A stretch of 64,000 bases of DNA from Cystobasidiopsis lactophilus. Its lineage: Eukaryota > Basidiomycota > Agaricostilbomycetes > Agaricostilbales > Chionosphaeraceae. Shown piece by piece: positions 4,066 through 56,210 of this stretch. Each line of letters begins with the position of its first letter. Positions within the stretch are counted from its first letter, which is position 1. The notes beneath the pieces are model-generated. The model ran no database searches and was not told where the DNA came from. It saw nothing but the letters and a program-made list of their open reading frames with translations. The translations under genes and the position numbers were made by a program. The stretch lies in contig BCIO01000001.1 in the NCBI GenBank assembly GCA_001599975.1, positions 5,019,631-5,083,630 of the forward strand, given 5' to 3'.

Positions 4066-4244
4066 TGTAGATCCCAAATGAGTATGAGTCGTCGTCGCCG
4101 CGGCGCAAGAGCGAACTTCTGAGTCCCGCGAGCGGCGTGCGCGGCTGCAGCTCGCGCTGGTGGAAAGTGTAGAATAAATTCATTATTGTCATCAATCAAT
4201 ACAAATGCGCGATCACGAAGCCAGAGCGGATATGAAATCCCAAG

Positions 4245-6079: not shown

Positions 6080-6761
6080 GGCCTGAAACCCAAGGCAAGC
6101 AGAGTCGACGGCCCGGTGAACAACCTCCCGAAACCGCTTCTGAAAGTCGCAAATTGGCCCCGCGGAGCTTCGTGCGAGGGGCAGCCTATCATAGAGGACG
6201 GGCGAGCCTTCTGTATTTGAAGAGCAACGTAGCACAGAGCAGAGCAAGCTCAGAATCAGAGCTCGGCGCGAGGAGGGGTGCACTTTTGGCGCAAGGCGAA
6301 CGTCAGCGAGTCTTTGTCGGCATGAAACGGGCAGGAACAGGCTCCGCAGCTCCTCCTCGACGCAACGAGTGCAAGAATGTTTCATGAAAACCCGTTCAAA
6401 CCTTTGGTTGCAGCGAGGAGGGTTAAACTGAAGGGCACCAGCCCGGCACGCTGTTCAAACTTGTTCAAGTCGGACTTGGCCGAAGGCGTCGGACACTTCA
6501 AACAAGCGGCATCTCTGAAAAAGACAGAGTCGTGCTTCTAGAGTAAAGGAGGCCATATGAACGTAGATGCATAAGAGCAGATGGCATTGGTGGTCGCGGC
6601 CAAGTCAACGCGCCGGATTTCAACTTGGTGGCGAATTTAGGCACTCGTCAAGATTTAAGCTGGTTGTGGGTTCCGAGTGACGAGGAAGCCAACTGGAAGA
6701 TAACAAGGTGCTCAAATGGGCACTTATGCGAATACAAGAAAGGGAGAACAGAACCGAAAAT
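6080..6761. other. intergenic region between the GT31 paralogues
   Basis: Holds the promoter of copy A and the 3' end of copy B (both minus strand). No further gene, repeat or RNA signal was recognised. An open minus-strand frame extending upstream from the copy A start is taken as leader sequence, since homology to copy B and the membrane topology begin inside the called gene. Confidence 0.5.
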
Positions 6762-24390: not shown

Positions 24391-27300
24391 TCAGCTCATG
24401 AGTGCCTCGCCGACAACGAACAGCAGGGACATGAAGGCGATCAGCATGTTGGCGATGGCAAAGTGGGAGATCGACTGGCCAATCTCCAACCAGGACCCTT
24501 GATCCGTAACCAGATGGAAAAAGTTGACCGTCAAGACGTCGCTGATGGTTAGTGAGATGAGGAAGATGGCGAAAGGGGGAAGGTGTAAAGCCTTATTGAG
24601 GGCGCAGGTGACCGACGCCACCACCAAGAACGGCACAAAGATCTTGTAGAGCAGCAAGGCGGCCATCAGGAAGGGCGAGAAGACGGGCACCAGCCGGAAG
24701 ACGGACTCGAGGTAGAAGGACGAGATGGACGCGATGTTGCCCGTGCCGAAGAAGCCGACGTGGACGAAGAAGAGGAGGAAGAAGGCCATCCGCACCTCTT
24801 GCAGCCCTATCGTCCCCCTCGTCGTCGCACCTTTGTCCTTACTTTGCGACACAGCACGTGTCTCTGTGTAGAGGCGGGACTCAAGCTGGAACCAGAGGAC
24901 CAGCACGCAGGAGAAGGAGGCGTAGAACAGCGTTTCGTAGGAGAGCGTGAGCATGATGTAGGAGGGCGCCAAGGACCAAATGAGGCCGATGAGGCGCTGA
25001 GTGGGCTGCTTGAAGATCCTTTTCGAGGCGTAGGCGCACCCGAGCGAGGAGGCTGTCCACTCGTTAGTGAGGCCCTTCGCCGCGACTTGCGCTTGACGAC
25101 CTACCCAAGATCAGCCATCCAGGCACTTGTACCCACAACGGTAGGCCAGTCTTGTCTCTGAGAGCCGAGGAGCCGAAAGTGACGATGATGCCGGCCACAC
25201 TTGGCAGAGAGATCTTGGCATCAAATCAGTCCAAACCCCAGCTCATGGAAGATTGCGCTCCACTCACCAACGAAAGGACTAGTATCATAATGTCGCTCTG
25301 ACCAAGACTTGCTGGAAGCTTGAGTGAAAGCAATGGGGTCGCGCACACCCAAACGAAAGGGGAGAAGCAAAAGACGGCCGCCCCTGCTTGGCTGCGCACT
25401 CAGACGGCTTTCAGTACCTTCAAGACAAACTCAGGACAACACCAACGCACACACGACTAATGTTTTCGCGCAGCACAGCCGATTGGCGAGGGTAGTCAGC
25501 AGTGGCCAAGCAAGAGACAGCCCAGCTCAAGACGAGCAGTTTGTGTCGGCGAAGGAAGGACCACGGCATGCCTAGAACCGGCCACGCAACGCCAAGTAGA
25601 ACCAACCCAATCGACCACGCCTCGCGCTTGAAGTATCCCACAACCGAAAGTTCCAGCATGGCCACCAGGAAGATTGCGGCACCGGAGAGCTTGAGCAAGG
25701 ATGGAAGCCGTACCCGCCGCCACACTCGCCAAAGCCCCCCCACGCATGACCAAAAGAAACACGGGAAGACGGAGTAGACGTAGTAGGAAAAGGGAGCTCG
25801 TTCGGTGACAAATTTGGCGATCGCCACCACCAGGACACAAACCGGGAGCAGGCAAGCTTTGTAGTCGAAGACCAGCGAATTTTCCGAAGGTCCTGCAGCA
25901 ACAAATTGATAGAGAATGAAAGTAGCGCTGAACGCCATCCAGCCCCAATAACCGAGAAGCACAATGGTCTCCAACAAGAGCCAATCATAGTCGTGAAGGT
26001 ATTTGATGCCGTCTAGTGAGGCGGTCATGAGATCTTCGATCTCGGACATGGCCGAGGAGTAGCTTTGCTTAGCCAATTGTTGGTCGATGGACTGGATCCG
26101 GGACTGAATCGACTTGATAGACGTCTTGTCGAGTGGAAGCTCGGCAAAGGGTTGATAGCGCAGAGTATGTGCCACCTTGAAAGCCTGTTTGGTGAGGAAC
26201 TGTTCCAGCACGCCCCTGGCGTTTGCGAAGGCCACATGAGCACGGTCAGACAGAGGCGCCGCAAGGTAGTCCAGTGGCACTTTGCCAACTGAGTTTCCCG
26301 GAAAGCGATTGCCGAGAAGAGCAGTCTGTGGTCGTTGTCAGATCTTCCAGGATGGGCGAGAGGATAGTATCGTACGGCAAGGGCGGCCACATCAGCTTGT
26401 TCGACGTCAATCTTAACATTCAGCGTAGAGTTCCATTCTGTCAGAAAAGGGTCGTCTGCTGGGGGTTTTTGAAAAGGCTGCACTCCAGCGCCCCAGGCAA
26501 TTAAAGGCGTCCGCGTGTTGTCACTGTTCCGCTTTATATTCAGAGACGTACGGGCCTGGAAAAGACACGCTTACGGGTGCCCATCACCGTGATTGCCGAT
26601 CTCACTTTGCGTTCGTCAGCTGTAGCTCCTGAGAAGTACGGATTTCGGGACTCACGACATCCCATGATCTGCGGTGAAGAGGAACGCTGTGCGCTCATCG
26701 TTGAAGAATTCCTCAAATAGCAGCTCCACCTTTTGCACAATAGCATCAACAGCTTGGATGTTGCGGTAGTACTCGGGCGAATGAGGGCGGTAGGCGTGCC
26801 CCGTTGTGTCCAACCCTAGCAGGTGCAGGAAAAACAAGTTGCCCGTCTGAGACACGGCCGAGCGCAGCTGTGGGTCGGAAGAGGCATTGGCGAACAGAGT
26901 TTGGACATGATGCAGAACCCAAATGTCCAAGTTTACCGCATCTGAGAGCAAAGTCAAACGTCAGCAAACCGGCCCTAGTCAGCCGGCGTGAACTAACCTT
27001 GAGTGAAGTCTTCGACGTGAGCATCGTAGCACCACATGTCAACCTTGCCATGATCTGCTCCGTGCACAAACATTGGGACAATGTCCGGCGATCCGAAGCC
27101 ATAGGCCTTTGTACTCTGATTGAAGACGGAGTCAAAGTGCACCGGATTCACTTTCCACCCTGTGTAATATGCATCAAGCAATAGGCGTTTGCATGAGAAT
27201 TACAAGAGTCTCACCCCTCAACACAGCCGAAGGGTCTTCGTACATCCCGGCGAGCAAGGCAACATGCCCAGGCCTGCTCTCGGTGGGCACCCGCGTATGA

Positions 27301-28828: not shown

Positions 28829-29387
28829 GGTGCGTTGCGTGGCAATTCTAGTCTGTCGCCGAGGCTGGTCAAGAAGAGTCGGGCCTTCTAGTCTTTTCTT
28901 TTGTGAGGGCGGGTTAAGAGCTCGCGGAGTCAACTTGTGGGCAGTGGCGAGAAGGCGACAGCTTGTTATATGGCAAGGATAGCGTTAGGGAGAGGGAAAT
29001 TATGCGGTTGCTCAGATATTAGTTCTGTGCAGTCAGCCTGAGCGTTGCGCGCCAAAAATTGGCAAAATATGAGCGCTGGATCGCTTCCTCACTCTCGTTG
29101 CACCCCTTTTCTCTAACCACAACAGAATGCACCATACTCCCCCACCGAGCTGCTTTCAAACACTCGGCCTCACCGAGTCCGTGTGAATAGGGATGCGCAA
29201 AATATGGGCAACCAACTCTAATAAAGGTGGCGTAGGTGAATCGCATCCCGTTCGAAAAGAGGCGGGTCACGAAGTCACGAAGAGCAAGGCCCGAAGAAGA
29301 AACCAGGACGGTGGAGATGCGCTGGAAAGGCAGCTAGAAGCAGAGTTGTGGCACGAAATGCGCATCAAGCAACAACAGCCTGACCCC
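28829..29387. other. intergenic region
   Basis: About 560 bp between the small membrane protein and the first of the paired orphan membrane genes, all on the minus strand. Includes an AT-rich patch around 28970..29050. No repeat or RNA gene recognised. Confidence 0.45.
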
Positions 29388-30005
29388 TTAATACACAACA
29401 GAGCGATCGGGCACTTGCGGCGGTGGGGCAGCGTAAGAGCCGTAAGAACCTTGCTGAGGTGCGAAGGATCCGGGAAAGAAAGGGTGGAACGCAGGATTGG
29501 GCTTGCGCCGACAAGACCACCACATCAGGCCAACGAACGCGAGGAATCCTACGATGGCTCCTATCATGTACCATTTGCTACGAGGACAAATATCCGTTAC
29601 TCTCTTCCAGGATGTCTTGAATGGCAAGAAACGCCTTACTACAAACGATAGCTGGCGAGTCTTCGTCATTAACAATCACCGCGACGTCCAAACCGCGGCG
29701 CAGAAAGCTCACCATGCTTTTGTGCCATATAGACCTAAACGTGGGCACATGCCCATGCATATCGTTACGTCAGCATGGCAAAGGCGAGACTGCATCGGCG
29801 ACATGTCAATGGAATCGTCGTCGTCGGGATCTTCGCTCCTTCGGATAATGCGCGGTATCGGACTAGGTGAGGGAAGTCGTGCCCCCTTCGCGGGATTGTC
29901 TGCCTGCGTCGGCGTCGGCGTCGGCGGCTGGCCTCCCGGCGGTCGAAACTTGGCAAGACAGCTGGCAACGAACCAGACGATAACAAGAAAGGGCAAGACT
30001 CTCAT
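29388..30005 (-). CDS. orphan type I membrane protein, pair member B
   Basis: Exons 30005..29713 and 29577..29388 on the minus strand (160 aa), intron 135 nt. Layout: cleavable signal peptide (MRVLPFLVIVWFVASCLA), a Pro/Thr-rich and then Asp-rich linker, and a conserved module S-P-M-Q-S-R-L-C...C-M-G-M-C-P ending at residue 97. Across the intron comes a membrane helix (KWYMIGAIVGFLAFVGLMWW) with a basic stop-transfer sequence, and a cytosolic tail with F-x-P-x-G-S-Y-G-S-Y and PQ-P-RS. The neighbour at 30393..31020 has the same order of parts and intron position. I know no family with this Cys module. A short extracellular sensor, adaptor or cell-surface antigen is possible, but function is unknown. 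Confidence 0.7.
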
Positions 30006-30392
30006 TTATTATGCGACCACTGCGTTGGTAGTCCAGGTATGAGTTGGCGTTTAGAAGACAGACGTCGGTTCGCTTCCAGGAATGCCAGCTGTCGAAACGA
30101 ACGCTAGAACAAAGGGACCAAGCAACACAAGGTGTGGGAGATAATGACAAAGTAGTGTTAGTGTTGGTGCAGTGGAAACGCCGAGCAGTGGCCACAAGGA
30201 GCGGATTGAATAAAAGGGCATCGGCCAGTGAACGGCAACATCCGTGGTGGGCTAACTGCCCCGTGCGAAACGTCAGCGCCTCATCTAAGGACAATACAAA
30301 TGTCATCCATACCGCCTCCGGGAGCAGGACCCAGGCAGAATACAGAGGGCGTAACAGAGTAGCGGCCGAAAATCGGTGCTCCAGCCAGACAT
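30006..30392. other. intergenic region inside the orphan pair
   Basis: Promoter of member B and 3' flank of member A. An open frame on the plus strand runs through it but is a shadow without start context or motif. Confidence 0.45.
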
Positions 30393-31020
30393 CTAGTAAT
30401 ACCCAATGGAGCGATTTGGAATCTGTGGAGCTGCCGCACCGTATGAGCCGTAAGATCCTTGGGCGGGACCAAAAGACCCTTGAGGGGCGGGTTGGAACGG
30501 AGGGTTGTGTTTACGCCGCTGCCGATACCACACCAGCAGGCCAACAAAGCCCAGGAATGCCACAACGCCTCCTATCATGTACCATTTGCTACGAAGAGAT
30601 AGTTCTTCAGCTATCTTTTTCTGAGGCGGCTGGCCCAAGAGCCTTACCCCCCAAAATAGTAGCTGACCCATCTCCCTAAGCATTCATAGAGTCGTCCCAG
30701 ACTGCGACGGAATAAACTTACCACAGTCGAATGCCATCTGTTCCCATCTGTGGGCACATACCCATGCAGAACGTCACAGTATTGCCGCAAAGGCGGGACT
30801 GCATTGGTGTCATATCGTCGTCGTCGTCGTCGTCATCGCGCTTTCTGATGAAGCGGTGGAGTGAAGGAGGCCTTCGTCGAGGGAGAGAGTCCTGAGGGAC
30901 ATTCAGGCCAAGGTCAATACGGGGCAGCGTCGGCGTTGCCATTCGAGGTGTTGGCGGCAAGCATGCTGCAAGACCGAAAGAGGCGAACCAGACAGCGCTG
31001 GCCAAGAGGGCAACTCTCAT
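30393..31020 (-). CDS. orphan type I membrane protein, pair member A
   Basis: Exons 31020..30722 and 30588..30393 on the minus strand (164 aa), intron 133 nt in the same place and phase as the 135-nt intron of member B. Signal peptide MRVALLASAVWFASFGLAAC, Pro/Arg-rich linker, a run of eight Asp coded by a GAC/GAT repeat, then T-P-M-Q-S-R-L-C...C-M-G-M-C-P. The membrane helix starts KWYMIGGVVAFLGFVGLLVWY, followed by RQRRK and a tail ending in G-S-Y-G-S-Y...PQ-PNRS. Similarity to B is strong in the Cys module, helix and tail and absent in the linker, which suggests an old tandem duplication with constraint on those parts. Function unknown. Confidence 0.7.
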
Positions 31021-31833
31021 TTACTGTCGTATGTAAGTCGACTAGACGGAACCTAAAGACGGACCGACGCCTATTGCGAGGAAGGAGAAATGCGAAGGTG
31101 TCTGGCAGGCGTTGGCGAAGTTGGGCAGCACAAAGGGACCACTTCGGCAGTTGTGGGAGAGTCATCTGGGATGCAAACATGATGAGCTTGCATATTAAGC
31201 AATGAACGAGAGTTTGCCGAACCGCGCATGCTCCTTGGTGGCGACAACATCAGCCGGCGAAGCTCAGAGCTAAAGGCAGTCCTTTCAAGCGCACCTAAGT
31301 AGAGCTAGTCGCTTGATTCTACACGATCTGTGGAACACCAGGCGGTGCTTCGACGAAATCAGCCCCATTGCCCATAGCAAAAAAATGCGGAGAAGAGAGA
31401 GTGTGGTTCAGGGCAAAATGATGTTGTCTGTAACCAGTGTCGCGAGCCGAAGCTTGCACGACGACTTATAGAAATCTCAAGTATTAAAAACGTGGTTTGC
31501 ATCATGTCCGGAGCGCGGAAGTCGGCGCATCGGCAGCAGAACGAAATATGAAGGGCGGGCCCTCACCAAGGATGCAGGCACAGGCGATCGATAGAGACGA
31601 TTCTGGTGTACTAGAGCAAAGCCAGGTGAAGCAGAGAGGAAGGCCGAGGAGCAAAGCAGGGGAAACAGCGCGGCCAAAGCGAGAATGAGAATCCGGGGAA
31701 GATCGTCGTGCGGCGCAAAGTTGTCGAGACTCAAAAGGTCGAGCGATTAGGCAAGGCAAAGTGTCGCTCAAGACATTCAAACAAGGCCACAGGAAGCAGG
31801 CCTGAAGGACATGAGGGTAGTCCAGGCCGCACA
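31021..31833. other. long intergenic region, no gene found
   Basis: About 800 bp. A minus-strand open frame near 31500..31840 has short stretches that recall the MCD4 start (ACFLW) but no sustained match. No repeat, RNA or mobile element recognised. Should hold the promoter of orphan A and the 3' flank of RSM10. Confidence 0.45.
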
Positions 31834-32451
31834 TCAAGCGGCGCTTGGTGGTAATGCACTGTCCATTGTGTCTCCAGGCGTCGTGGCCTCCGGCGCGGGC
31901 TGCCCTTCAAACTGTCGAGCCAGCTCTTCAGCTTGAGCTGAGATGTCCTCCTCCGTCGACCGTTTGCCCCTTCCTGACCTCGCCTCCCCTTCCAACGCCG
32001 GCAGACCGGCCTGCTGCCCATCCGCCGCGAAGCCCACCGGCCGGTGGACGAACTGCTGCGTCTTGTAGCCTATCCCCGGCACCGAGTGGGCCTGTAGGTA
32101 CTGCAGCCACACGCTGACCACGGCCTCGTCCGCGTCCCAGAGCTTGAGCAGCCTTTTGTGCGTTTTGCGCTCGAACGTCTCTTGCGACTTTTTGTGGACA
32201 AAGGCGCCTTTAGGGACCGCTTGCCGCTCTGTCCGGGTTGGCAGGTGGACGACGTTGGAGCAGGGGATGTTGAGGGCCGCAGCCGCTCGCCGGGCGAATT
32301 CGACGGCGAGCTCGAGCTCGGCCCTGCTGTCGCCATAAGAGCGCATTTGAACGGACGCCACATGGACGCCGTGAGACTGAGGGACGATGGCAGGCGGACG
32401 GTGGCCCAACAAGAGGCCAGACGTCGGGTTGGCCGGGTTTCTGTGGCGCAT
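31834..32451 (-). CDS. RSM10: mitochondrial small-subunit ribosomal protein uS10m
   Basis: Single exon on the minus strand (205 aa), ATG at 32451. The S10 core is clear: VASVQMRSYGDSRAELELAV (start of the fold), then AALNIPCSNVVHLPTRTE, a loop with KGAFVHKKSQETFERKTHKR, and WDADEAVVSVWLQYLQAHSVPGIGYK. Fungal Rsm10 belongs to the mitochondrial 37S subunit. The about 30 residues before the core are Arg/His/Pro-rich and serve as a possible import signal, although short; an upstream exon cannot be excluded. The C-terminal about 70 residues are Glu/Gln/Ala-rich, absent from bacterial S10. It is divergent from the orphan X1 gene, and the intervening space contains the first 187-bp repeat copy. Confidence 0.88.
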   Translation of the reverse strand: MRHRNPANPTSGLLLGHRPPAIVPQSHGVHVASVQMRSYGDSRAELELAVEFARRAAAALNIPCSNVVHLPTRTERQAVPKGAFVHKKSQETFERKTHKRLLKLWDADEAVVSVWLQYLQAHSVPGIGYKTQQFVHRPVGFAADGQQAGLPALEGEARSGRGKRSTEEDISAQAEELARQFEGQPAPEATTPGDTMDSALPPSAA

Positions 32452-32534
32452 TAAATTTTGAGCTTCTCAAAACAAGCGAACCCAACCAAGCGGGCAACGC
32501 ACAGGCGAGGAGCAGCAGGGGCAAGCGCGGATGT

Positions 32535-32721
32535 AGACGCCACTGAGGACGCCTGTCGCTGCAGCAGTTTGGGCAGTCGGTTCATCATCGCCGCTAGGCT
32601 CGAGGTCGACTTGGGTCAGGGAGCGCGGGTCGCCTTCGCTCGGCCAGGGTCGCTGCCTGCTCGCTGCCTTGTGGTCGCTCTCGTATGCTGTTTAAGACCG
32701 TGGATGCTGCCTGAATGAGTC
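32535..32721 (+). repeat. 187-bp direct repeat, copy 1
   Basis: Runs without gaps against 34751..34937; by hand count about 19 of 187 positions differ (roughly 90% identity). The best-kept part is the last 70 bp, from CTCGCTGCCTTGTGGTCGCT to the end (GAATGAGTC), and a shared CATGG-containing patch follows shortly after in both copies. It lies between RSM10 and orphan X1, upstream of the X1 start by about 280 bp. Confidence 0.85.
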
Positions 32722-33004
32722 TCCCGCGCCTTCGCTGCCTTATCCATTCGTGGCCATGGAATTGTGGCCTGGTCCAGTCACGGCTCTAGCATTTCCTGCT
32801 CCATGTTTAGGCATTGGCGCTTTCCACAATGCTCTCGAGCCGCATAGGGACCTACGGGGCTCGAGTAAACCCGTCATATGACACTGCCTCGCTGGGCCCG
32901 GAAGACGACTGTTTCCCTGTCCTCTCTATTCTATCCCGGTCCTCGACTGTTTTGCCCAAGCCCTTGCTCTCAACCGTTCTTCTCAACCGTTCTTGAAAGA
33001 ATCT

Positions 33005-34516
33005 ATGACTATGTTGAGTAAAGCCGAGTCGTTCTACGATGTTGAGCAGAGCACCCTGGCTCTCCTGCGCGAGTTTGTCAACGCCCCGAATGTTTTGTCA
33101 AGTTTTGGCTGGCATAACGTAGAAGAATCTCTCGACGAGAAGATACGCATGCTCGGTAGCTCTGCCGACCAGCGACTCGCCGCAGAAGCAGAGCCAGGAC
33201 CATCCCGTCTCCAACCGAACAACCCACCGACCCAGCACAGCTCTCAGTACAGTCTGCAACAGGCGCATCTTCGCGTCATCAAGAAAGAGATCTCCGCAAC
33301 CCGTCATGCCAAGTTGGAGGCCGTCAACCGCGCCGTCTGGAAGTCCCTCGAAAAGGCCGCAGCAACAGCCAAGACGCCTGCCCACGAGCTTGCCTTCCTG
33401 TCGCTTCTCTGGAAAGGTCATCACCTATTTCATCACATCCTACTTGATCCCCGAAGAGTTCATGTGGGTCCTTTAATCTTCTTACAATCAAAGAGCGCTT
33501 CGCCGATGCTGGCGGCTGCTTTCTCCTTAGTATTACGATTCGTTCGTGGAATGCTTGACGAACAGTCTCCCCAGCAATCACAGATTCACGCATGCTCAAA
33601 CCCTGGCGCCATTCCTTGCGCAACACCAGCCGCAACAAAGAACGGAAGCTGTCCTTGTTGCCACCATTGAAAGTAAGTCCCTGGCGGGTCGCAAGGCTGG
33701 TCTGCGTGCCGATTTTTATGTATCTTTACAGCATGGGCATCAAGTCGCAGTCTGGCCCTGAACAACCTCAATATGGAAGGCCTCGTTGCGTCCGCCGCGG
33801 GGCATCCTCTCCCGCCTGCAAATTCCGGATATTGGCGCTACTTTGACTCGCTTGTGCAGTCGCTCGAAGAGGGCAACAGAAAAGTGGGATATTCCCTCTA
33901 CATGCCCCTAATTGTCGGACAAGCGCAACGCCCCGATCCAACGAGCGAATTCCGCCCGTTGTTCGACTTTAATCAGGCAGTCGGAAAATGGATCGAGTCT
34001 CTAAGGATTGCCATTTTGAATCGCTGTGACAATGCTCTGTCTGGCCGCAGCGGTGGTCTTCAACGCGCGTATAGTCTGCTGGGCCTCCAAAAGAGGCAAA
34101 CCCAGCGATTTGGGTTCGCCTTGGCCAAGAGAATTTGGGAAAGCAGTGATGTCTCTCACATCGGCGATGCAAGATCGGTACGAAATGCGTGCTTTGCAGA
34201 CTTGAAGCTCCTGCTGCAAATTTCAGCTCACTTCGACCGTGGACGCACGGAATACGCTCTTCGAATCATGCGGGTATGTAGGCCTCCAGACCACCAACAA
34301 AGTCCACTCAACCGAGCTCTACCCAGCCCTACGAAACCGAAAAACTGTTCGTTGAGATGCAGACGGCTCTTAAAGAATGTGCTGTTGCGGACGTTAGCCA
34401 CACGTGAGCTCTTTTACAGAGTGCTTTCGCTCGGCCTCTTCTCATCCACACTTTAGCTTTACCACACTTGTGACAGCAATTGGAAGTCACCAAACTGCCC
34501 AAAACTCTTACTTTGA
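33005..34516 (+). CDS. orphan protein X1 (tandem paralogue of X2)
   Basis: Five exons: 33005..33457, 33531..33672, 33732..34273, 34327..34392, 34457..34516 (420 aa); introns 73, 59, 53 and 64 nt, all phase-consistent. Soluble, largely helical, no signal peptide or membrane segment. It shares exon structure and patchy sequence with X2: LAFLSLLWKGHHLFHHILLDPR against VAFLQRLWLAHFAYYEIIPDPK, TWASS against TWANN right after the third exon junction, and KWIESLRIAILNRCDNAL against KLMRSVRTRIQERCHQHL. It ends in a short Cys-containing exon (CDSNWKSPNCPKLLL). No known domain recognised. The long divergence in sequence combined with retained introns suggests fast evolution. Confidence 0.65.
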
Positions 34517-35407
34517 CGGCAACCCAAATGACCGCCATGAACCGATCGAAGCCAGCGTTTTCCTCGATCGGAACCATTACTTGCGCCCTGCAAGCGGCCT
34601 ACTGTACTCAATGCGTAATTCGTGATGCTCTGCTGGTTTGGATGGCCCGAAGAGAAGATCCGATGTGCTTTTGCTAAATCCAACCGCCACTGCTCTGTCT
34701 TACTTGGCCATTCCGCGCGCTCCTAATTTTCTACAGCCCTCCTTTAAAATAGACGCCGCTGAGGACGCCTGTCGCTGCTGCAGTTTTGGCAGTCGGTTCA
34801 TCCTCGCCGCTGGGTTGGCGGTCGATTCGGGTCAGGGAGAGCTGGTCGCCTTTGCCCCGCCAAGATCGCTACCTGCTCGCTGCCTTGTGGTCGCTCTCGT
34901 ATGCTGTTTAAGACCGTAGATGCTGCCTGAATGAGTCGAATGCGTGCCGCGCCTCACTGCCTTTTGATTCGTGGCCATGGCAATCGCTGACCTGCCCTTC
35001 TCTTTTCCCTCCTTTCGTCTTTCGCCCTTTGCCTATCGTTATAATGTAAAGAGTTTACGTTTTCGGCACTCCTGGCGTCCAAGATGCTCCTATCTTGCAA
35101 CTCAAGTAAATGGACGCCGTGTTCTGCTCGTCTTGGGTGGATATGCAGTGCAGGATTGGCGCCCTAACGTTGCTTGATGCCTTGTGCCGGTTGCCTTCCT
35201 CCTCTGAATCCTAGGCACTGGCTCGGAGTGTTACTGAAACTGGTTCGACCCAGAGGCGTGCCGTACGTTTAGAATCGGTGACGTTCCGCTCCGTTCTCTT
35301 CTTCTTCTCCGACCACGGCTCAGCCGCATTGAACGGCAAGGATACTCGAGCATCTTTGTCCTCTAAGCTCCGCTACTACCCGGTTCACTTCAGGAATACA
35401 TCCCAGG
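34517..35407. other. intergenic region between X1 and X2
   Basis: About 890 bp with the second copy of the 187-bp repeat (34751..34937). The rest, some 470 bp down to the X2 start, holds no recognised gene. A pyrimidine-rich tract (about 34995..35040) follows the repeat. Confidence 0.5.
34751..34937 (+). repeat. 187-bp direct repeat, copy 2
   Basis: Same orientation as copy 1 and 2216 bp away, about 470 bp upstream of the X2 start. Equal length and no gaps imply that the two were one sequence duplicated together with the gene next to it. Copy 1 also sits in front of the divergent RSM10 gene; copy 2 has no such neighbour. Confidence 0.85.
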
Positions 35408-36912
35408 ATGTCTGCACCGCACATAGATCTGGCGCTCTTCAGTTTCTTTTTCCACGAGGACTGGAGAGCCTTCGAACATCGTATTGACGCCATGGAATCA
35501 CCATCAAGCTTCTTTAAAGTCATCAACGATGTCAAGGCCAGAGCTGCCAGGCTGCTTGGGGCAGAGCTACTTGCCTTCGCGCAAAGTTCTTGCCCTGACG
35601 ATGCCCTTGTGGCGTTCCTCCAACGACTCTGGCTCGCCCATTTTGCCTATTACGAGATCATACCTGATCCGAAGCCTAAAGTAAGCGAGGTCGATGCGCA
35701 CTTTGCGGCCCTGCGTTGCTTACCGTCGCGAAGACCTTTCTGGCGTCCTTGGTCGAATTGCTCCAAATCGCCCGAGATAAACGGCTTAAGACCGCCAAGA
35801 AGCCCGATACACCCGCTTCAGTTTTCACCTCAATTCTTGAGCACGTACAACCACTACCCCAGCAGGAGCACGACATGCCAGAGAACATCCGGCAGTGCTT
35901 GCAAAGTATGCCTCTAATTTCAAGGCTAGCGAGAAGAAGAATGACTGGGAAGTCTAGCCTGGGCTAACAACACTTGGAACCAACGCGAGTGGTCGACTCG
36001 ACATGGAGCTGAAGGTCCGAACTTCGCCGAATTTGCGCCAGTCCTTCTGTCCAACCATCACCTGCCTCAACCTTGGTCTCGCTTCTGGGACCAAGTTTTC
36101 TTCCCGTTCATCAGACCTCTCGAGGAGTGTTTCCAGGGCAGGTTCAACCAATCGCTTTTCATGTTTCTGGTGATAGAGATGGCTCTTCCGCGTGGTGATC
36201 CAGCCGGAGAGGCACTGCAGCTCAGCCATGCATTCTTCAAGCTCATGCGCTCCGTGAGAACGAGGATCCAAGAGAGGTGCCACCAACATCTCACCCCGAA
36301 GCCCACCGACGTACCCGAGAGGCCTCCGAGCCCGCTGCAACGAAGGGCATCAAGGGCATCTCAGCTTGCCGGCCCCCTCTTGCGGAGGTCTTCCAACATT
36401 CTCAAACCGGATAGGGAAAGCAAAGCTGCTTTATTTCGCGACATCGCGTTGGCCTTGGAGATTGCAGCCATCATGGAGCAAGGCAAGCGCGAGTGCCCAA
36501 AGAACTATCCAAGGTGCGCTGGACAGATCGTCTCTTCTTGGTCTCCCGAAATTGTTGTAACGTGACAGTGGTTTTGTAGCCCATCGAGTCGATGCATCTG
36601 CTCCAAGCTATTCAAAAGACTTCGGAGCCCCTTCGCCAGCTCAGTGGCTCAGCTCGGGAACTTGTCGACAGAATCTACGAGCGTCATCGTGTCCATCATG
36701 AAGCGTATATGCCCGGTGGGCACAAAGGGGAAGTGGCAACCTTTTTCGACCACCAGCCAGCGCTGGCGCCGGCGACCGACATCCTCAACCTCTTTGCGCA
36801 GAGCAAGAAGGAGAGCGCCAAAAGTGCTGTATTACGACTTCCCAACATATGGGGCCAAAGAATTCTCCAAGGCAGGCCACCACTCGTTCATGACCAACTG
36901 AGACCAAGCTGA
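35408..36912 (+). CDS. orphan protein X2 (tandem paralogue of X1)
   Basis: Exons 35408..35680, 35734..35905, 35958..36529 and 36580..36912 (449 aa). Introns are 53, 52 and 50 nt, at the same places and phases as the first three of X1. The N-terminus is shorter than in X1. The third exon gives TWANNTWNQREW, PWSRFWDQVFFPFIRPLEECF and the helix KLMRSVRTRIQERC; the fourth begins PIESMHLLQ where X1 has PYETEKLFV. The 3' end is uncertain: the neighbouring frame reads LYYDFPTYGAKEF before a stop at 36901 and resembles the last X1 exon, so a fourth intron may exist. No known domain, signal peptide or membrane segment. Function unknown. Confidence 0.62.
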
Positions 36913-37192
36913 GCTGAAGTTCAGGCTTTGGCGGGACTTGATGCAATATGCAGTGGTGTGGGTTTCAGAAGAAGCTCCAGCGGTTGTCCTAAGGGGGCTT
37001 CAGAGGTGGTCCATTTTGGATGCGGCCCATTCAACGCGATTCAGCGGGGTGCATCAAACCGGAGGTCCATCAGACCCTAAAAACTGCCATTGTATCTTGT
37101 CTTCGATTTATAGAAGTTCCCTCTTGTGCAACGAATCCGGCTTGCCCATTTACGCCACAACTCGAGAGCTAATCAAGCCAAGATGGCTATCA

Positions 37193-37943
37193 TCACGCCG
37201 TCCTGAGGATGAGGTGCAGGCCGCTGTCGGTCTCGACAACGTCGCTCATCTGGCCGACGTCCAAAGCGAACGAGGCGTCTTCGAAGGGCTTCTGCATGGC
37301 GCCCCGGCCAAACATTCCGAGGTCGCCGCCGTGCGAGTGGGAGCCGCAGTCCGAGTTGTCGGTGGCGAGCGCGGTGAACTTGGTGGCGAGCTCCGAGCCG
37401 GCCAAAGGGCGGAGTTGGACCTCGTAGGTTTGCAGCTTGGCCAGCGCGTCCTCCTTGGACAAGCTGATGGCTGGCTATAAGATCACACCAAAAAACACCA
37501 GCTCAGTTGAAAAGCGACGAGAGATGAACGAAAAGGGAGCGTGTCCTCACGTCTCTCCAGGAAGCGGGCCTTCGAGATCCGGACCACTTGACCAGCAGGT
37601 GGCTAGCTCGGACTTGGCCGGCCGACTGTTTGCTCGCCTCGCCGCCCGCCGACGCTTTCGAGCTGGCGCCGCCGCCAATGAGCAACTCGGCGCCGGGCAG
37701 GGTAGCCAGCTGGTCGTCCGTCAAATCGCTCGGTTTATCCCAGATAGAGGTCCTGTCCAGCATTTTACCTCTTAGCCACGCTGTAGGGAACGCGAGAGAG
37801 GGAGAAGGGGGGCGCACCCAGTGGAAGCCTGGAAGAAGTAAGGCCGCTTCTTGCTATTGCTCCAGCGCACTTCCCAGTCCGCCTGCGCGCTCGTTTGAGC
37901 TCGTGTACACTTTGCGAACTTAGACCAAGCTCAAACTCACCAT
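37193..37943 (-). CDS. ESS1: parvulin-type prolyl isomerase Ess1/Pin1
   Basis: Four exons on the minus strand: 37943..37941 (only the ATG), 37882..37818, 37752..37551, 37474..37193 (183 aa); introns 58, 65 and 76 nt. The WW domain DWEVRWSNSKKRPYFFQAST...SIWDKP has both signature tryptophans, and a Ser/Gly/Ala-rich linker separates it from the parvulin domain. There SHLLVKWSGSRRPASWRD, SDCGSHSHGGDLGMFGRG, MQKPFEDASFAL and SGLHLILRTA carry the catalytic Cys/Ser/His set and the basic phosphate-binding loop. Ess1 isomerises pSer/pThr-Pro bonds, notably in the RNA polymerase II tail. The intron directly behind the start codon is the odd point. Confidence 0.93.
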
Positions 37944-38255
37944 TTCGTCAGCTGCTTCGCTGCAGCTGAGCAAGCTGCTCTCAACTCCTCTGACGCTTTT
38001 GCTGCGACAGATGTCCAAAGATTTCACAGAATTCCGACTTGGCTGGAATTCTGTCTGTTGGGGTTAGTTCGGCTAGAAGCTTTATAATTGCCAGCTGCGG
38101 CGACCTCAGCGAGGCCTCAGCCACCTGCGAGCCCGGTGTCCGGCGCGCGGAATCTGTGATTCTCCTGGGTCAGGCCCAGTCGAATCAATTTTGGGGGCGC
38201 AACAATCCGCCTTCCGACCCTCTGCAGCGACCAGCAAGCACGCGGTCATTAAAGC
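37944..38255. other. divergent promoter (ESS1 / PTC7)
   Basis: About 310 bp shared by two divergent genes. No TATA box or repeat stands out. Confidence 0.5.
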
Positions 38256-39973
38256 ATGTCCATGTCCAAGCCGTCGCTGATCCGGTTGGGCAAGCGAGCG
38301 GCCAAAGGAGCGGCGGCCTCTGCGTCGCCCATCGTCAAGCAGTACTCCCACGCCGCCGCCCTAAACCGGTTCAACAGCCAAGGCGGCCTCTTCGACCCGT
38401 CCTACCACTCTGGGTCCACCTCAGCCAGCAGCTGGGCGTCCGGCTCGTCCCCTAAAGATGGCGGCCCGTCCTCAGGGGCGGCGATCTCGTTCGACCTGCT
38501 GCTCCATCACCCGGCGACCACAGCGTCTACGTCGACGTTTGACAGCCCGTTGCCTTTGTTCACCGCTTCGTTGGCCTCCCAGCACAACCCGGCCTTGACC
38601 AACCCCTTCTTGCCACTCTACGCACCCGTGGCTTCCTCATCCAAGCGCTCCTCCAACAACGACGCCTTCTTGCCTTCCACCACCACCCCACAGCGCACCG
38701 CTACCCCGAATCTCTGCTTTAGACGGAACGGCGCTTCCGGGATAGCCAAGAAGCCAGGCCACCCCACCGACTCGCGCGCACCACCTCCCAAACCCACGCC
38801 GGCCGCCACTTTGCCGGGCTTCGAAGCGGCCGCCATCCCGCCCGAGTTGGCCAGCTTGGGCAAAGGGAACGAGTTCCGGAGCGTGCAGGTCGGCGAGGAT
38901 GCGTACTTCATCAGGAACGACTCGCTCGGCGTGGCCGATGGCGTCGGAGGATGGCAGGGCAAGCGCGGCGCCAACCCAGCTTTGTTCTCCAAGCTGCTCA
39001 TGCACTGTGCGTTGCTCCTACCCGACCAATTAAAAGCTGTAAAAGACTCAATTGAGGTTCATTTTGATCCGCGCACAGACTGCGCGGTCGAGTTTGAGCG
39101 GTACGAGGACGTGGACGACCCGCTGTTCTTGGACTACTACAACGTCGACCCCATCGACGTGCTCTCAGAAGCCGCCGACCGCTGCCTGGCCGCCGCCAAA
39201 GCGCAGGCCATCGTCGGCTCCTCCACCGCCCTTTGTGCCGTCCTCCGCCGGGACATGCTCCGGGTGGCCAACCTAGGCGATTGTAACTGCTCGTTCGTTG
39301 CCCTCTTTTGACCCCATCTGCTTTCACGCCGAAGCTGATCCCTTGTCGACTGCAACGAACAGAATAATCCGAGGGACGGACTACCTCTTCCGGAGCAAGG
39401 AGCAGCAGCACTCGTTCAACTACCCGATGCAAGTGGGCACCCAGTCCAGGGATCACCCTCGAAACGACGCCCAGCGCTTCGACATCAAAGTCCAAAAAGA
39501 TGACGTGCGTTCCGTCCCCCAGCCGCCCTCTTCAGGAAGGCTGATCTATCAACGATCGCACAGATCGTGATTCTGTCTTCGGACGGCTTGATCGATAACC
39601 TGTTCGAGGAAGACATCCTCGAGGAGGTCCTCCGCTTCTCCCACCCTTCCTTCGACCCGGTCACCTCAATGTCGGACCCCAACTACGCCCAGCGCATGGC
39701 TGGCAAGCAGGCTACCTTCTCACCCCAAGCAGTCTCAGAAGCGCTCTGCGCTAGAGCCCGAGCCGTCATTGAGGACCCGCTCGCCGTCAACTCGCCGTTC
39801 CAACAACGAGCGGTCGAGGAGGGCATGTGCGTCGACTCTTCCCTCTTGATCTTCCTTGCGATGCTCAGAGTTTTGGTTTCTTGCACAGGTACTATACGGG
39901 CGGCAAAGCAGACGACATCACCGTTTTGGTGGCGGTCATTGGCGAGGAGACGGACACTCCCAATCGCCGCTGA
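38256..39973 (+). CDS. PTC7: PP2C-type protein phosphatase Ptc7-like
   Basis: Five exons: 38256..39006, 39079..39292, 39363..39504, 39564..39826, 39889..39973 (484 aa); introns 72, 70, 59 and 62 nt. Ptc7 is the mitochondrial PP2C phosphatase that acts on coenzyme Q synthesis. Metal-binding motifs are present: GEDAYF at the start of the fold, GVADGVGGW, then LGDC (for the usual LGDS), SSDGLIDNLFEEDILE and the last metal-binding GGKADDITVLVA. The first about 200 residues are basic, then Ser/Pro/Thr-rich, with an N-terminus fit for mitochondrial import. In this gene the LGDC segment crosses an exon end and reads LGDCNCSIIRG. The catalytic core agrees with the family; the N-terminal extension is much longer than in yeast. 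Confidence 0.9.
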
Positions 39974-40149
39974 TTCCATCTCTTTAGACGACTCCACTGT
40001 AAAAGTTCCTCACTCCCATTCGTAACGACCTTCTATTGTATGGCATTTCTGTGTTGCAAGGAGTATAGACCCCGCCGCATCATTTTAGACTTCTGAGTTT
40101 CCTCTGCCCGGCTCTTGACGCCCATCAGCCGAGTCAAGCTAGGGACCTG

Positions 40150-42561: not shown

Positions 42562-44632
42562 CTAGTAAGGATGCTTGGAGGGTCCGGGGACCGCCTTGAT
42601 CTCCGAGTCGTCGTCGTCGCGAACCACAGCCTTGCCTTTGCCGACAGGTTGGCTCTGCGTGCGAACCATTTCGGGAGCGATATATCCACGGTCGTCATCG
42701 GGAGATGAGGGGTTCAGGTCCTGCATTTCCATTGGAGCAGTGCCAGCGCCGGAGTTGCCAGGGCGGTGGGAGTCATCGGGAGACAAGGGGTTCAGGTCCT
42801 GCATTTCCATTGGAGCAGTGCCAGCGCCGGAGTTGCCAGGGCGGTGGGAGTCATGGGGAACCGAGGGAGCAAGGCCAGCGCCGGAGTTGCCAGGGCGGTG
42901 GGAGTCATCGGGAAACGAGACGATGACATGGCGAGGCCGGGCTTCAGAAGTGCGTCGAGTGCCATCGCCAGTCTGGGTGACAGGGGTAGCCATAGTGGCG
43001 GGCCTGGCGGGCCTGCGGCTGGTGACGAGGAGGCCGCCCACATTGGTCGTGGTAGGCTGATTGGCAGCGCTGGGGTTGGCATTGACCAAGGAGCCCCAGG
43101 TGACGGCGGAGTTGCCTATGGCCTTGCTTTCCAAACCGCGCCACTGAGCTAGAAGTTCGAAAGCGGTAGCGTTGGCGTCGTCAACCTGAGTATAGACGGC
43201 GTAAGAGGCCTTCGTGGAGCTATCAACACAAGTATGATGAGGCTCACGTTGGTGAATCCACACTCGAGCATGCCGGCGAGGTTTTTGATGTCGCGCTGGA
43301 AAGTCTTGATCTCTTGGTAGAGCTTTGAAGTGCGCGAAGCTGTAGAACGCTCGTCATTCGCCGCTTTCCTTGTCAAAGGTGGGTCATGTTAGCTACCCAA
43401 GCCTGTGCCGCGCATCAACCCGAGGACACCAGCAATCTGTTGAACCTGGGTAGGAGGTGGCCTCTCCTGTGCAGGGTTAAGCAGAACTCACGGCAGTCGA
43501 GGCGATGCCAAGGCCCAGCACGCTGTTGCCATTCGAGGTCATGACCGAGAGGGCGATGCCGACGGCCAAAGAAGCAAGAATGAGCATCACTTCCATGACT
43601 GAGATGCACTATTATCGAGCCCCGTTGCCATGAGTCCTCGAATCGTTCACACTAATAAAGAGGCGCAATTCATGGACACACCGTGGCTATGCGTTCCATT
43701 TTGTGGGCTTGCTTGATAGACGAGGAGTAGGGCTCCCACAAGAGCCTGAGGCAATTGTGCTCGCTGTTTGGGAGGCGGTTCTTCATGGATGTTTCGTCGT
43801 CACCTCTGCGGAAAAAGAACCTCTGGGAGGCCTGGGCCTGAGGGGCGCCACCGCCGCCAGCGCCGTGGTTGTTGACGGGGCCGCGGTTGCCGTGGTTGTT
43901 CTGGCCAGCGTTGTTGTTGACGGAGCCGCGGGTGCCGTGGTTGTTCTGGCCTCCGTGGTTCTGGCCGGCGTGGTTGTTCTGGCCAGCGTGGTTGTACTGG
44001 CCGGCGGCGTGGTTGTTCTGGCCGGCATGGTTATTCTGGCCGGCGTAGAGGGAGTCTTCCTCGGTGGAGTGGTGCTCGCCGTTGGGGTCGATGGTGTTGG
44101 GGTCGCCGCTGCCCTGGAGAGTTCTGTGGGTAACCTGCGTGTCGGTTTGGACGTGGATCTGCTCCGCAAGGTGGTCTCTGTTGGGCGAAACAGGCGCGGC
44201 AGCGAAGTCGCGGGCGGGTACACCTTTGACGGGACTTCTCATGCCACGAACGTGGACGGCGACGGGCTGGGCCACGGGAGGAGACTGCGGCTTGGCGTTG
44301 CGGTTGTGCCTCCCAAAGTTGAAGAGGCCTTTGGAGGGCTGCCGATTGGACTGCGGCACATCCGTGTTCTTGGGGGTGGGCTTGGGCAACGGGGGCTCAT
44401 CGTCCCTGCGATTGGCCGCGAGAGCAGCGCGCTGGGCCGCCTGCAGCTTGGCCGCGTCCGCAGCAGCGGGACTTTCATCGTTCAAGTCCGGGATGGAGGC
44501 GATGGAGGGAGGCACGGTGTTTCTGTGCTCGCCTTCGAGGTATTCGCTTGAGCCGTCCTCAACTCGGTCCTTGGGCTTGGACCTGTCTGGTATGACAAAG
44601 GGAGGCGTTTCTTCGGGCAGGTTCATCGACAT
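42562..44632 (-). CDS. SLATT-like 2TM protein with internal repeat tracts
   Basis: Five exons on the minus strand: 44632..43678, 43598..43492, 43436..43397, 43339..43248, 43185..42562 (605 aa); the first intron junction is the least certain. Residues about 200-270 are a degenerate AGQNNH repeat (Asn/Gln/His/Gly). Next comes LRLLWEPYSSSIKQAHKMERIATV, two membrane helices (MEVMLILASLAVGIALSVMT and VLGLGIASTAIAGVLGLMRG), and a coiled helix (SKLYQEIKTFQRDIKNL). That order and the sequence around the second helix resemble the fungal SLATT 2TM domain, known from bacterial conflict systems as a suspected membrane effector. The C-terminus has two full 26-residue repeats and one partial copy of DSHRPGNSGAGTAPMEMQ. 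No linked nucleotide cyclase or SLOG gene is seen. Family call is moderate. Confidence 0.6.
42711..42910. repeat. 78-bp coding minisatellite
   Basis: Two nearly perfect 78-bp units (period measured from 42713 to 42791) and a third partial one within the last exon of the SLATT-like gene. Each unit codes 26 residues, so copy-number change keeps the frame. Confidence 0.85.
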
Positions 44633-52545: not shown

Positions 52546-53239
52546 ACTCCCAGTGCTCAGCTTATACCCAGTCACTCCTCTTGTATACAAGACAATATTG
52601 AACTATTTTCTGCTTGCTCCTCTTCACTTCCTGCTTGAAGGGCACAGGCCACTGCGCATGTCATGTGCGTTGCGTCCATGCGAGGTGATGGCCGGCCCGG
52701 GCCATTGTGATCTTGTTCGATTGTAAGATCCTGACAACGACATGCGTCCTCAACCTCGAAGATCTGCACTGCACATCATGTGCGAAAGAGGTTTCCTCTG
52801 CCCTGTGCCTGTTCTGGATAGTTTCAGCCGCCAGCCAGCTACAATACTGGCAGACTGCCGCGGAATCAGACTGCGTCAGCTTTAAGTTCATGCCCTTGGC
52901 CCTCAATTCGAAGATGGTTTGCGCGCTGCCCTTCTTGCTGCCTTTCAAATGCTATACCAAGTAATGTTCAGAGCTGCGGACGGCGTCGTCTTGAAGATTC
53001 GGCGAGTCCAACCAAGCCAAGACGCGTCCCAAGTCGATTTGACATCGATCGCCATCGCCAACGCGACCGATCTGCAAGAACGAAAGGCTAGATTCCGATA
53101 GGCCTCTTTTTCCGATGACAGCGACGGCCGAACAACGTCCAAGGCTTCTTCTGAGCTTCTTCTGGGGCGAACCGAGCGCCTTTTCTGGTAGGCTTGGCGC
53201 CTGTGCCTTTCGCTGAATCGGCCCAAGGGGACACCAAAG
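52546..53239. other. intergenic region
   Basis: About 690 bp between X3 and fucosyltransferase-like F1, both plus strand. A minus-strand open frame has no support. The pyrimidine-rich end near 53195..53215 is probably the F1 start region. Confidence 0.45.
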
Positions 53240-55271
53240 ATGGCTGGACTCGGCTACACTAAGCTGCTCGACGAAAAGGAGGCCATAAACAACAACGAAA
53301 CGCGATTTTCCATTGAAGAAGAAGAAGGAGCGCCCCTCGTCCACTCAAAAGAGGCTATCTTGTCTCCTCCACATCATCACCACACCAAGCAGCCACGCGT
53401 CCGAGTGTCCATTTTCTACGTGGTGATAGGGACCGTTGGCGTCCTGCTCGCAGTCTTCATTTTCTTCCCCGAGGCGTGGCCGATTCGGCGGGAAGAGAGC
53501 GGAGGCCTGGGCGAGCCTGCCTTGCCTCAAGGAGAGGTCCTAACAGCAGCAAAACAAGAGGGGGAAGATGCGCTACCACCGATCCAATGGGGCGACGACA
53601 GGTTCAAGATGCCAAGCCTGGCAGCGACCCGGCCGCGACTTTCAGCAGCAGAGGCGGACGCCAAGTTCTGCCCTGGCGGCAACTGCAAGTTCCTCTTCCC
53701 GGCAATGCTCACTGACCAAGAGACTGGCGCCGCTCAACACCTTTACTCGATGGGCATCTTGGCGCATTCGCTAAATCGAACTTTGGTCTTGCCACACACG
53801 CGTCACTCTCGCCTGGGGGCTTGTTTCAACAACCCTTTCACAGAATATTATGCGGAACACGCGTTGGAGGCACTGGGATTCACAACGATCCTTCAAGATG
53901 GTGGGCACCATCTCTTCTGCCATCGGATGAGCTGCTGACCTAGGAAGCAGACCTCTTCGAGTGGATCAACGTTCGAGATAAGGAATCTACTGGGCAGATC
54001 ATTGAGCTCGGGCGGCACGGCGTCACGACACCTCCTGGCGGCTACATGGTGCACACCGACATCCCTGGCAGCTTTTTCCCCGTGTACGGCCATGAGTTCT
54101 GCATCCAGCGACCTTACTCCTACCTCTGCTTTGATGATTACTCGCCCATCAGCTTCTTCGTGGGGACTTTTCCTGCTTGCCTTTGTGAATAAGTCTCATT
54201 CTTTGCCGGCAGCCACCACCTGGCCGCCTCCTCTACCAAGAAGCAATAGACTACGGGTCTTTCATTATGAACACGTTGCGCTCTCCGTCCATTTGGGAAG
54301 AATCTAGGCGACCGGACGCTCACTCTTCCGGCCCTTCGCCGGATGTGTTGGTGGTCAACTACGAGAACGGCCAACTGGACCTGCGCTCGCTCGCTGGCGT
54401 TCGAGCGCCTCCAGAGATCGACACGTCCTCGATCTTGCCCTACGAGCACTTTGCCTACTCAGAAAACTGGTCCTTGCTGGCCAAGCACATTTCCCACCGG
54501 CTCGGCAGTTTCATCGCGGTCCATTGGAGACAAGAGACGGTCGAGGTCACCAATCTGGCACCTTGCGCCGAGTCTTTGCTGGACATGCTGCGGCGCTTCA
54601 AGGCTCAATTCCCAGTTCTCACGGCCGTCTACCTATTGACCGACTACCCCTTTGAGGTTCTGGAGCAAGGAATCGAAATTGACCAAGGCCACTCTGGAAC
54701 ATTTCATCACCTTGGTCCAGAGCATCACTCGGCCATGCGGAGGTTCCTAGAGGCGTTCGCAAATGGGGAGATGGAGGGATTGAGGTTGAGCACTTTGGAC
54801 CGCGAGCTGCGCTCAGGCCTACTGGGAGCCGCATCAACGGTCAGGTTTGAGGACCTGGAGGTGGGCGTGGTGGGGATCATCGACAAGGAAGTGGCCATTG
54901 ACGCAGAGGTCTTTGTTGCTGGGTTCGTCGTTCTCCCTCTTCTCTCTTTCTTTTGACCAATCTAACTTGAGCATCAGAGTGCACCCTTATTGCGCACGAG
55001 ACAGCGCGTTTACGAGGCAAATCAATGACGAGCGCGTCGGGTTGATGGTCGACCAATCTTTGCCCGACACGCCGCGGCTGCTGCAAGAAGGGCTGGCTTG
55101 GAACTCTGTTCGGGTGCGTCCACAAACCTCGCTTGAACTTTTATTCTAATTTGATTTGAACAGTACTTTGGCTACAACGAGACCGACGTGGCCGAGACGC
55201 AAGCCCGGGAGTGGGAGCGAGAGGCTGCGAAGTACGACCTGCCCGAGGACTTCGTGCTGTCCCTGCTGTGA
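53240..55271 (+). CDS. O-fucosyltransferase-like type II membrane protein F1
   Basis: Five exons: 53240..53900, 53951..54159, 54213..54922, 54978..55113, 55164..55271 (607 aa); introns 50, 53, 55 and 50 nt. Cytosolic tail with His/Lys stretches, membrane helix (VSIFYVVIGTVGVLLAVFIFF, about residues 55-75), stem, then a lumenal domain. The signature QHLYSMGILAHSLNRTLVLP recalls the start of PF10250-type O-fucosyltransferases, and HWRQE occupies the place of their catalytic HxRR-like motif. Further blocks: CIQRPYSYLCFDDYSPISFF, FAYSENWSLLAKHISHRLGS and LTAVYLLTDYPFEV. The next gene F2 is a tandem paralogue. Donor and acceptor are unknown; a cell-wall or protein glycosylation role in the Golgi is inferred from topology. 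Confidence 0.62.
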
Positions 55272-56210
55272 TGCGGTCCACTACAGTCACTTGCCTGATC
55301 TCATCAACCTCATCCACCTGCGAGCGTTGTTCTTTTGGTCGAGTTCTCTGTCTGCGATGGGTGGCGGCAATGGCTTTCCCTTCCTTCGCGCGTTGTATTG
55401 TGTCGGATATGAGCTTGTTATAGATATAGAACCATAGACTGTACTAGGTGTAAAGGCGGCTAGTTTGGACCACAAGACCGTGAGCAGACTTTGCGCCACT
55501 GCACTCCCCGAAGATTTGGCCTTTGCTCCCATTCTTCCTAGGACTTTGCCTTGCAGCGTTCTGACGTGGCCTGCGCCATGTATTTCTGAGCCGGAGAGTA
55601 CGCGCTCGCTGTCTGCTGTCAAAACTGGGACCATCCAATGCCTCTCAATTCGAGAAAGCGCGTTCTGCAGTGGATGGGCTGGACGAAAGCTTGCTGCCCT
55701 TCTTGCCCAACAAGTGCCGCTCTCCAACGAGATATTAGATGTCTGATATGCTCCACCCATTGCTGCCTACCCGCATATAAAGGCCGGTTGCGCTCCATTC
55801 GAGAGCGAGTGATGCGCGTCCCCATTTTTGCCCCTGCCACCTTCTTGCCCTTCTCGCTCCGTTGACACTTCCTCCTCTCGTGCTGTTGAAGCGTTTGCTT
55901 TCGTGTCTCGATCGCATGGCTAGAAAGACGCAGGCGAGGAGGCCCGAGGAAAAGCGCACCCTTCTTCGAACTTGCCAGCTGTCCATTTCGGTTCCGGACT
56001 TGTCGTTGTGAACGTCACCATGCACACCTACAGAGGTGTGTATAAGCATGCTGAAATGGCTGGACTGTGCTCTTTTCCATTTCATTATTAACCTAATTAT
56101 ATCTTGCTAATGAAAGCAAGGATCAACATCTCCTTGCGGATCGCCCTTGTCTTTTCTCAGCAAAACCGAAGTGGACAAGTTGATTGTTTTTAACCAACAA
56201 GTCGTCCAAC
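55272..56210. other. intergenic region between F1 and F2
   Basis: About 940 bp. A TATAAAGG patch (55776..55783) lies about 430 bp before the F2 start, and a 17-codon frame beginning at 55812 follows it; both may belong to the F2 leader. No repeat shared with the F1 upstream region was seen. Confidence 0.45.

What the first reader, a model, noticed from the sequence alone, without database searches (positions are those of the whole stretch)
32535..36912. Tandem orphan genes X1 and X2, each with its own copy of a 187-bp upstream repeat
Two adjacent, same-strand orphan genes share intron positions and phases and only patchy protein similarity, while the 187-bp sequences in front of them remain about 90% identical with no gap. 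Regulatory DNA that diverges less than the protein suggests a conserved control element, a non-coding RNA, or recent gene conversion of the upstream part. No known domain is visible in either protein. This is the best candidate in the window for an undescribed family.
Basis: partly seen in the sequence, partly recalled or inferred. Interest (0 to 1): 0.75.

Follow-up and report, generated by a model that had tools for sequence, protein, structure and literature searches.

The report
Diverged gene twins, near-identical upstream DNA
Two neighbouring fungal genes of unknown function, probably old tandem copies whose proteins have drifted far apart, still carry almost the same stretch of DNA in front of them, most likely because that stretch was copied or evened out between them later and may serve as a shared on-switch.

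Summary
Copies at 32534-32721 and 34750-34937 match at 169 of 188 bases without a gap; similarity continues, with three indels, to about 32759/34980 (86%). Searches of the 22.1-Mb genome found only these two. X1 and X2 are homologous multi-exon genes (29% protein identity, third codon positions 72% different); exon 3, introns, leaders and 3' flanks show no DNA similarity above shuffles. Three other tandem pairs in the window keep alignable gene DNA; in two of them similarity stops 3 nt before the start codon. A structured RNA, coding exon or dispersed element is unlikely. Best reading: old tandem duplication, with the promoter-proximal segment homogenised later (gene conversion or local copying), perhaps kept as shared control. 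Constraint alone is the main rival; without relatives the two cannot be separated. No known family matched, but X1 and X2 share no 5-residue word, so the protein search could not link even them: 'orphan' is provisional. Fission-yeast wtf genes are a precedent for a conserved upstream block, not a family claimed.

The parts
32534..32759 (+). Upstream repeat, copy 1 (ungapped core 32534-32721; gapped tail to 32759, ending at a GGCCATGG); lies between divergent RSM10 (-) and X1 (+)
34750..34980 (+). Upstream repeat, copy 2 (ungapped core 34750-34937), between X1 and X2
32656..32721 (+). Most conserved block of copy 1: 1 mismatch in 66 nt; holds short ATG-initiated frames present in both copies (MLFKTVDAA, MLPE)
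   Evidence: mismatch list; frames
33005..34625 (+). X1, exons 33005-33463, 33531-33672, 33732-34273, 34327-34403, 34457-34625; 462 aa; hand-made in-silico model
35408..36912 (+). X2, exons 35408-35680, 35734-35905, 35958-36529, 36580-36912; 449 aa; hand-made in-silico model with a weak donor at intron 3
31834..32451 (-). Left neighbour: mitochondrial ribosomal protein S10 (RSM10); its start codon lies 82 nt from the repeat, so copy 1 also lies in its upstream region
   Evidence: Pfam PF00338; fungal rsm10 homologues
37193..37474 (-). Right neighbour: part of a parvulin-type peptidyl-prolyl isomerase, convergent with X2 (exact gene bounds not determined)
   Evidence: Pfam Rotamase PF00639 on 37196-37474

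Best explanation
X1 and X2 are products of an old tandem duplication of a fast-changing, probably mainly helical and soluble protein gene together with its upstream region. After the coding parts, introns and 3' flanks had diverged, the promoter-proximal segment (about 190-226 bp) of one copy was copied onto the other by gene conversion or a local duplication. It probably acts as the shared promoter and start of the leader, keeping the two paralogues under the same control while the proteins specialise. Shown: two copies and no more found, their extents, gene homology, loss of DNA similarity outside the repeat, absence of coding-phase, RNA-fold or dispersed-element signatures. Inferred: that the copying came after the gene duplication, the promoter role, co-expression, and solubility (hydropathy only).
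Against: Mismatches are not spread evenly: 14 of 19 fall within one 60-nt stretch (reached by 0.24% of 20,000 random placements; the window size was chosen after seeing the data), and the last 66 nt hold one. That is more natural under selection on parts of the element, or needs several conversion tracts. The longest mismatch-free run is not significant (0.066). No relatives or population data were available, so no conversion test by phylogeny was possible. No expression data.
Confidence: 0.52

Rival explanations
1. The repeat dates from the same duplication as the genes and has been held by purifying selection alone as a long, dense control element (promoter plus leader, possibly with translated short upstream frames).
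For: Uneven mismatch distribution with a 66-nt block holding one mismatch; the block keeps the short frames MLFKTVDAA and MLPE in both copies, and the single change in it is synonymous in the first of these.
Against: Silent sites look saturated, yet nearly every position over 188 nt and its spacing would have to be constrained; one synonymous change in nine codons is no statistical evidence; codon-phase counts of the 19 mismatches are even (6, 7, 6). In pairs Y and Z no upstream DNA similarity was found.
Confidence: 0.28
2. The repeat is an inert local copy (DNA-repair patch) with no shared function, and X2 or X1 may be decaying.
For: Only two copies, adjacent; X2 needs weak splice sites; codon-usage support for both genes is weak (0.03 and 0.08 log units per codon in frame), and one reverse-strand frame of X2 scores 0.01.
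Against: Second codon positions differ far less than third (46 vs 72%), which needs selection on the proteins for much of their history; the in-frame score is the highest of six frames for both genes; copy 2 stands to X2 as copy 1 stands to X1, on the same strand.
Confidence: 0.14
3. The repeat is a structured non-coding RNA gene, a mobile element or a small protein-coding exon.
For: Length and conservation are compatible; open stretches cross parts of it.
Against: Rfam: 0 matches up to E 1; no tRNA or tmRNA in the window (bacterial settings); folds less stable than the shuffle mean on both strands of both copies; 2 copies only; stop codons in all 6 frames of both copies and even mismatch phases.
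Confidence: 0.06

Closest known systems
Fission-yeast wtf genes with their 288-bp conserved_up sequence (PMC5478263, passages seen)
   Same: Fungal genes that carry a nearly identical upstream block (288 bp shared by cw9 and cw27, conserved before many other wtf genes); rapid diversification of wtf genes is stated in an abstract seen in a listing (PMC13160552).
   Different: [quoted passage not shown] here two tandem copies, no stretch that looks membrane-spanning (highest 19-residue Kyte-Doolittle mean 1.06 and 1.27; that wtf proteins are membrane proteins is recalled), and no sequence link was tested or is claimed.
Tandem paralogues homogenised in part by gene conversion (general phenomenon, recalled)
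   Same: Adjacent same-strand copies, a bounded block of high identity next to diverged sequence.
   Different: Conversion is better known for coding parts (recalled); here the coding part diverged and the upstream part is alike. Direct proof by phylogeny is missing.
The other tandem pairs in this window (Y, W, Z)
   Same: Adjacent same-strand duplicates in the same 64 kb.
   Different: Their genes align at DNA level (62-72%), and for Y and Z the similarity stops 3 nt before the first ATG: the mirror image of X1/X2. W was not resolved at its 5' end.

Membership tests
wtf meiotic drivers (S. pombe) | The conserved_up sequence upstream | not tested
   A block of similar size and place exists here, but its sequence was not compared with conserved_up.
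wtf meiotic drivers (S. pombe) | Multi-pass membrane proteins (recalled) | tested here: not met
   Highest 19-residue hydropathy mean 1.06 (X1) and 1.27 (X2); no dedicated membrane predictor was run.
wtf meiotic drivers (S. pombe) | Dispersed multicopy family | tested here: not met
   Only X1 and X2 in the genome above noise. LTRs were not searched for specifically.
Any Pfam family | Score above the family cut-off | tested here: not met
   0 families for X1 and X2 at E up to 10.
Structured RNA of a known Rfam family | Covariance-model match | tested here: not met
   0 matches up to E 1 in 30000-40000.
Gene-converted tandem paralogues | Within-species copies more alike than orthologues between species in the converted tract only | not testable with these tools
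   The own genome has no relatives held.

The most novel reading that the evidence does not exclude
X1 and X2 are a lineage-specific pair of rapidly diversifying proteins in genetic conflict (for example self-recognition or a drive-like pair) that must be expressed together, so that recombination or selection keeps one common control element while the proteins change; the organisation would be a small-scale counterpart of the wtf conserved_up arrangement in an unrelated protein family.
Probability: 0.06. Interest if true: 0.75.

Novelty: new member of a known kind. Interest (0 to 1): 0.36.

Why it matters

Tried and rejected
Structured RNA: rejected. Coding exon or conserved peptide in the repeat: no support from mismatch phases (6, 7, 6 of 19) and stops in all six frames of both copies. 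Dispersed or mobile element: two copies only. A possible third family member at C4:2288801 (E 0.1 with a stop inside) was fetched as L011 and rejected: its re-test by tblastn gave E 0.53 there, and the best match anywhere in L011 was E 0.39. Homologous proteins: X2 alone and the X1+X2 alignment gave none at E up to 10 among 7997 and 7996 scored candidates; X1 alone was not searched. A control with the neighbour RSM10 gave 45 proteins, the best-scoring 59% identical and unnamed; those with an organism named are Mortierella relatives plus one Basidiobolus, none a basidiomycete, so fungi are in that database but perhaps no close relative of this species. X1 and X2 share no 5-residue word, so such a search could not link even these two. 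The X1+X2 profile against PDB sequences gave 6 matches up to E 10: the designed protein KWOCA_60 (E 0.008, a 71-position stretch) and five chains of the phosphatase PTPN3 (E 1.7-1.9); I take all as chance. Structure: exon 3 of X2 with exon 3 of X1 as a two-row alignment gave mean pLDDT 42, helices only; no fold search was made, as so poor a model gives meaningless matches. A longer gene start at the GGCCATGG at the end of the repeat (ATG 32756 and 34977, frames of 41 and 66 codons) was considered by eye: for X1 a frame-keeping intron can be drawn, for X2 none of ordinary length was seen; not adopted, and not tested by script. Bacterial-type promoter scan: no promoter-like site (not suited to fungi). 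Papers: five searches, of which one search found none; listings only, except PMC5478263, of which I saw passages. By titles and starts of abstracts, wtf was the only fungal case of the kind in those listings; a plant paper on conserved blocks upstream of rbcS genes (PMC1852302) touches on it. That is no proof of absence.

Full report
Setting. The window is bases 5,019,631-5,083,630 of contig 1 of an unnamed 22.1-Mb genome in 8 contigs. Short GT-AG introns and a mitochondrial S10 whose organism-named homologues are all fungal say fungus; the group was not established (the rRNA request did not complete). X1 and X2 lie on the + strand between RSM10 (31834-32451, -; PF00338) and a parvulin-type isomerase (37193-37474 at least, -; PF00639).

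The repeat. Two copies, 32534-32721 and 34750-34937, agree at 169 of 188 positions without a gap. A gapped match with three indels carries on to 32759/34980 at 86% overall; both copies share ATTCGTGGCCATGG at its end. Genome searches found nothing else: copy 1 as query (2 candidates, both scored, both these), copy 2 (the same), a 28-mer with up to 3 mismatches (2 hits, reversed control 0), and a 20-mer with up to 3 mismatches (4 hits: these 2, and 2 with three mismatches against 2 in the reversed control). The tool warns that counts of repeats are lower bounds and very common words are skipped.

The genes. With hand-placed GT-AG introns X1 reads as five exons (462 aa) and X2 as four (449 aa). 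Three introns agree in position and phase. The splice sites were partly chosen by comparing the two proteins, so this agreement is not independent, but the proteins align well beyond chance (score 143, best of 300 shuffles 65, made with an earlier reading of the X2 C-terminus) at 29% identity. In six-frame genome searches, which use no splice model of the target, X1 finds the large exon of X2 (E 0.0012) and X2 that of X1 (E 1.8e-4). Codon positions 1, 2 and 3 differ at 57, 46 and 72% of 380 aligned codons: the proteins have been under selection for much of their history, and silent sites look saturated. Codon usage supports the chosen frame best of six in both genes, but weakly. Neither protein has a long strongly hydrophobic stretch. 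Pfam gives nothing for either, nor do PDB sequences for either alone; the two-row profile gave 6 PDB matches that I take as chance. The low-confidence model of exon 3 is helical (pLDDT 42).

The contrast. Between the two units the only DNA match at E up to 1 is the repeat. The leaders after the repeat (score reached by 245 of 300 shuffles), the 3' flanks (42 of 300) and the three shared introns (182, 75 and 111 of 300) show no excess, and exon 3 DNA scores 18 against a best of 20 in 100 shuffles. The window offers a yardstick: a self-comparison shows three more tandem pairs, at about 4.2-8.2 (W), 29.4-31.0 (Y) and 53.2-58.2 kb (Z). In each, the DNA match covers the genes at 62-72%. In Y and Z it ends 3 nt before the first ATG (alignments; ATGs read from the translations); in W the match ends at 5696/8215 and the start codon was not determined. 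So of four tandem pairs, X1/X2 alone has an upstream match without a DNA match in the genes.

What the repeat is not. Mismatches are spread evenly over codon positions (6, 7, 6) and all six frames of both copies hold a stop, against a coding exon. Rfam gives no match up to E 1, and all four folds (two copies, two strands) are less stable than the mean of dinucleotide shuffles (z +1.88, +2.31, +1.65, +1.10), against a structured RNA. Two copies only, against a dispersed element.

Homogenised or constrained? If the repeat were as old as the gene duplication, selection would have had to hold 188 positions and their spacing while silent sites saturated. Promoters normally keep short islands (recalled), so later copying of this segment from one gene to the other is the simpler account. 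Against it stands the uneven distribution of the 19 mismatches: 14 lie in one 60-nt stretch (reached by 0.24% of random placements; window size chosen after the fact) and only one in the last 66 nt. Selection on part of the element after the copying, or several conversion tracts, would explain that. I therefore favour copying plus some constraint (0.52) over constraint alone (0.28). The decisive test is a phylogeny of both parts across related species; none is held here.

What it may do. Position and orientation, the same in front of both genes, suggest a shared promoter and the start of the leader, hence co-expression. Copy 1 also lies 82 nt from the start codon of the divergent RSM10 and could serve both. 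The best-conserved block carries the same short ATG-initiated frames in both copies (MLFKTVDAA, MLPE), and the one change in it is synonymous in the first: a lead towards translational control, nothing more. None of this is shown by expression data.

Known parallels. The wtf genes of fission yeast share a nearly identical 288-bp upstream sequence, conserved_up; the authors presume that transcription of the long, antidote-coding isoform of cw9 and cw27 requires it (PMC5478263, passages). The arrangement is similar; multicopy dispersal is not met here, the sequences were not compared, and membership is not claimed.

Verdict. A real and somewhat unusual pattern in a pair of genes without known relatives. 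It is a good test case, but as a kind of thing (tandem duplicates with a homogenised or constrained promoter) it is not new.

Noticed in passing
window 29376-31023 (-): Tandem pair Y of small proteins (first ATGs near 30005 and 31020); 62.5% DNA identity that ends 3 nt before both.
   Followed up: partly
window 4242-5696 and 6758-8215 (-): Tandem pair W, 71.5% DNA identity over about 1.5 kb; the 4278-4955 stretch has a sub-threshold PAN_4 match (E 0.00056, 20.3 bits against a cut-off of 27).
   Followed up: partly
window 53237-55271 and 56208-58249 (+): Tandem pair Z, 70.5% DNA identity over about 2 kb starting 3 nt before the first ATGs; no Pfam match for 57233-58060. With X, Y and W this makes four tandem pairs in 64 kb, which seems dense; no genome-wide comparison was made.
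   Followed up: partly
window 42734-42787 and 42866-42919: 54-bp direct repeat, 92.6% identical; a minus-strand open frame 42562-43263 spans it.
   Followed up: no
window 25423-26280 (-): Part of a PIG-N (GPI-anchor pathway) gene (PF04987, E 7e-37).
   Followed up: no
window 32756 and 34977 (+): The repeat similarity ends within a few bases of a GGCCATGG in both copies, opening frames of 41 and 66 codons; an alternative start for both genes cannot be excluded without transcripts.
   Followed up: partly
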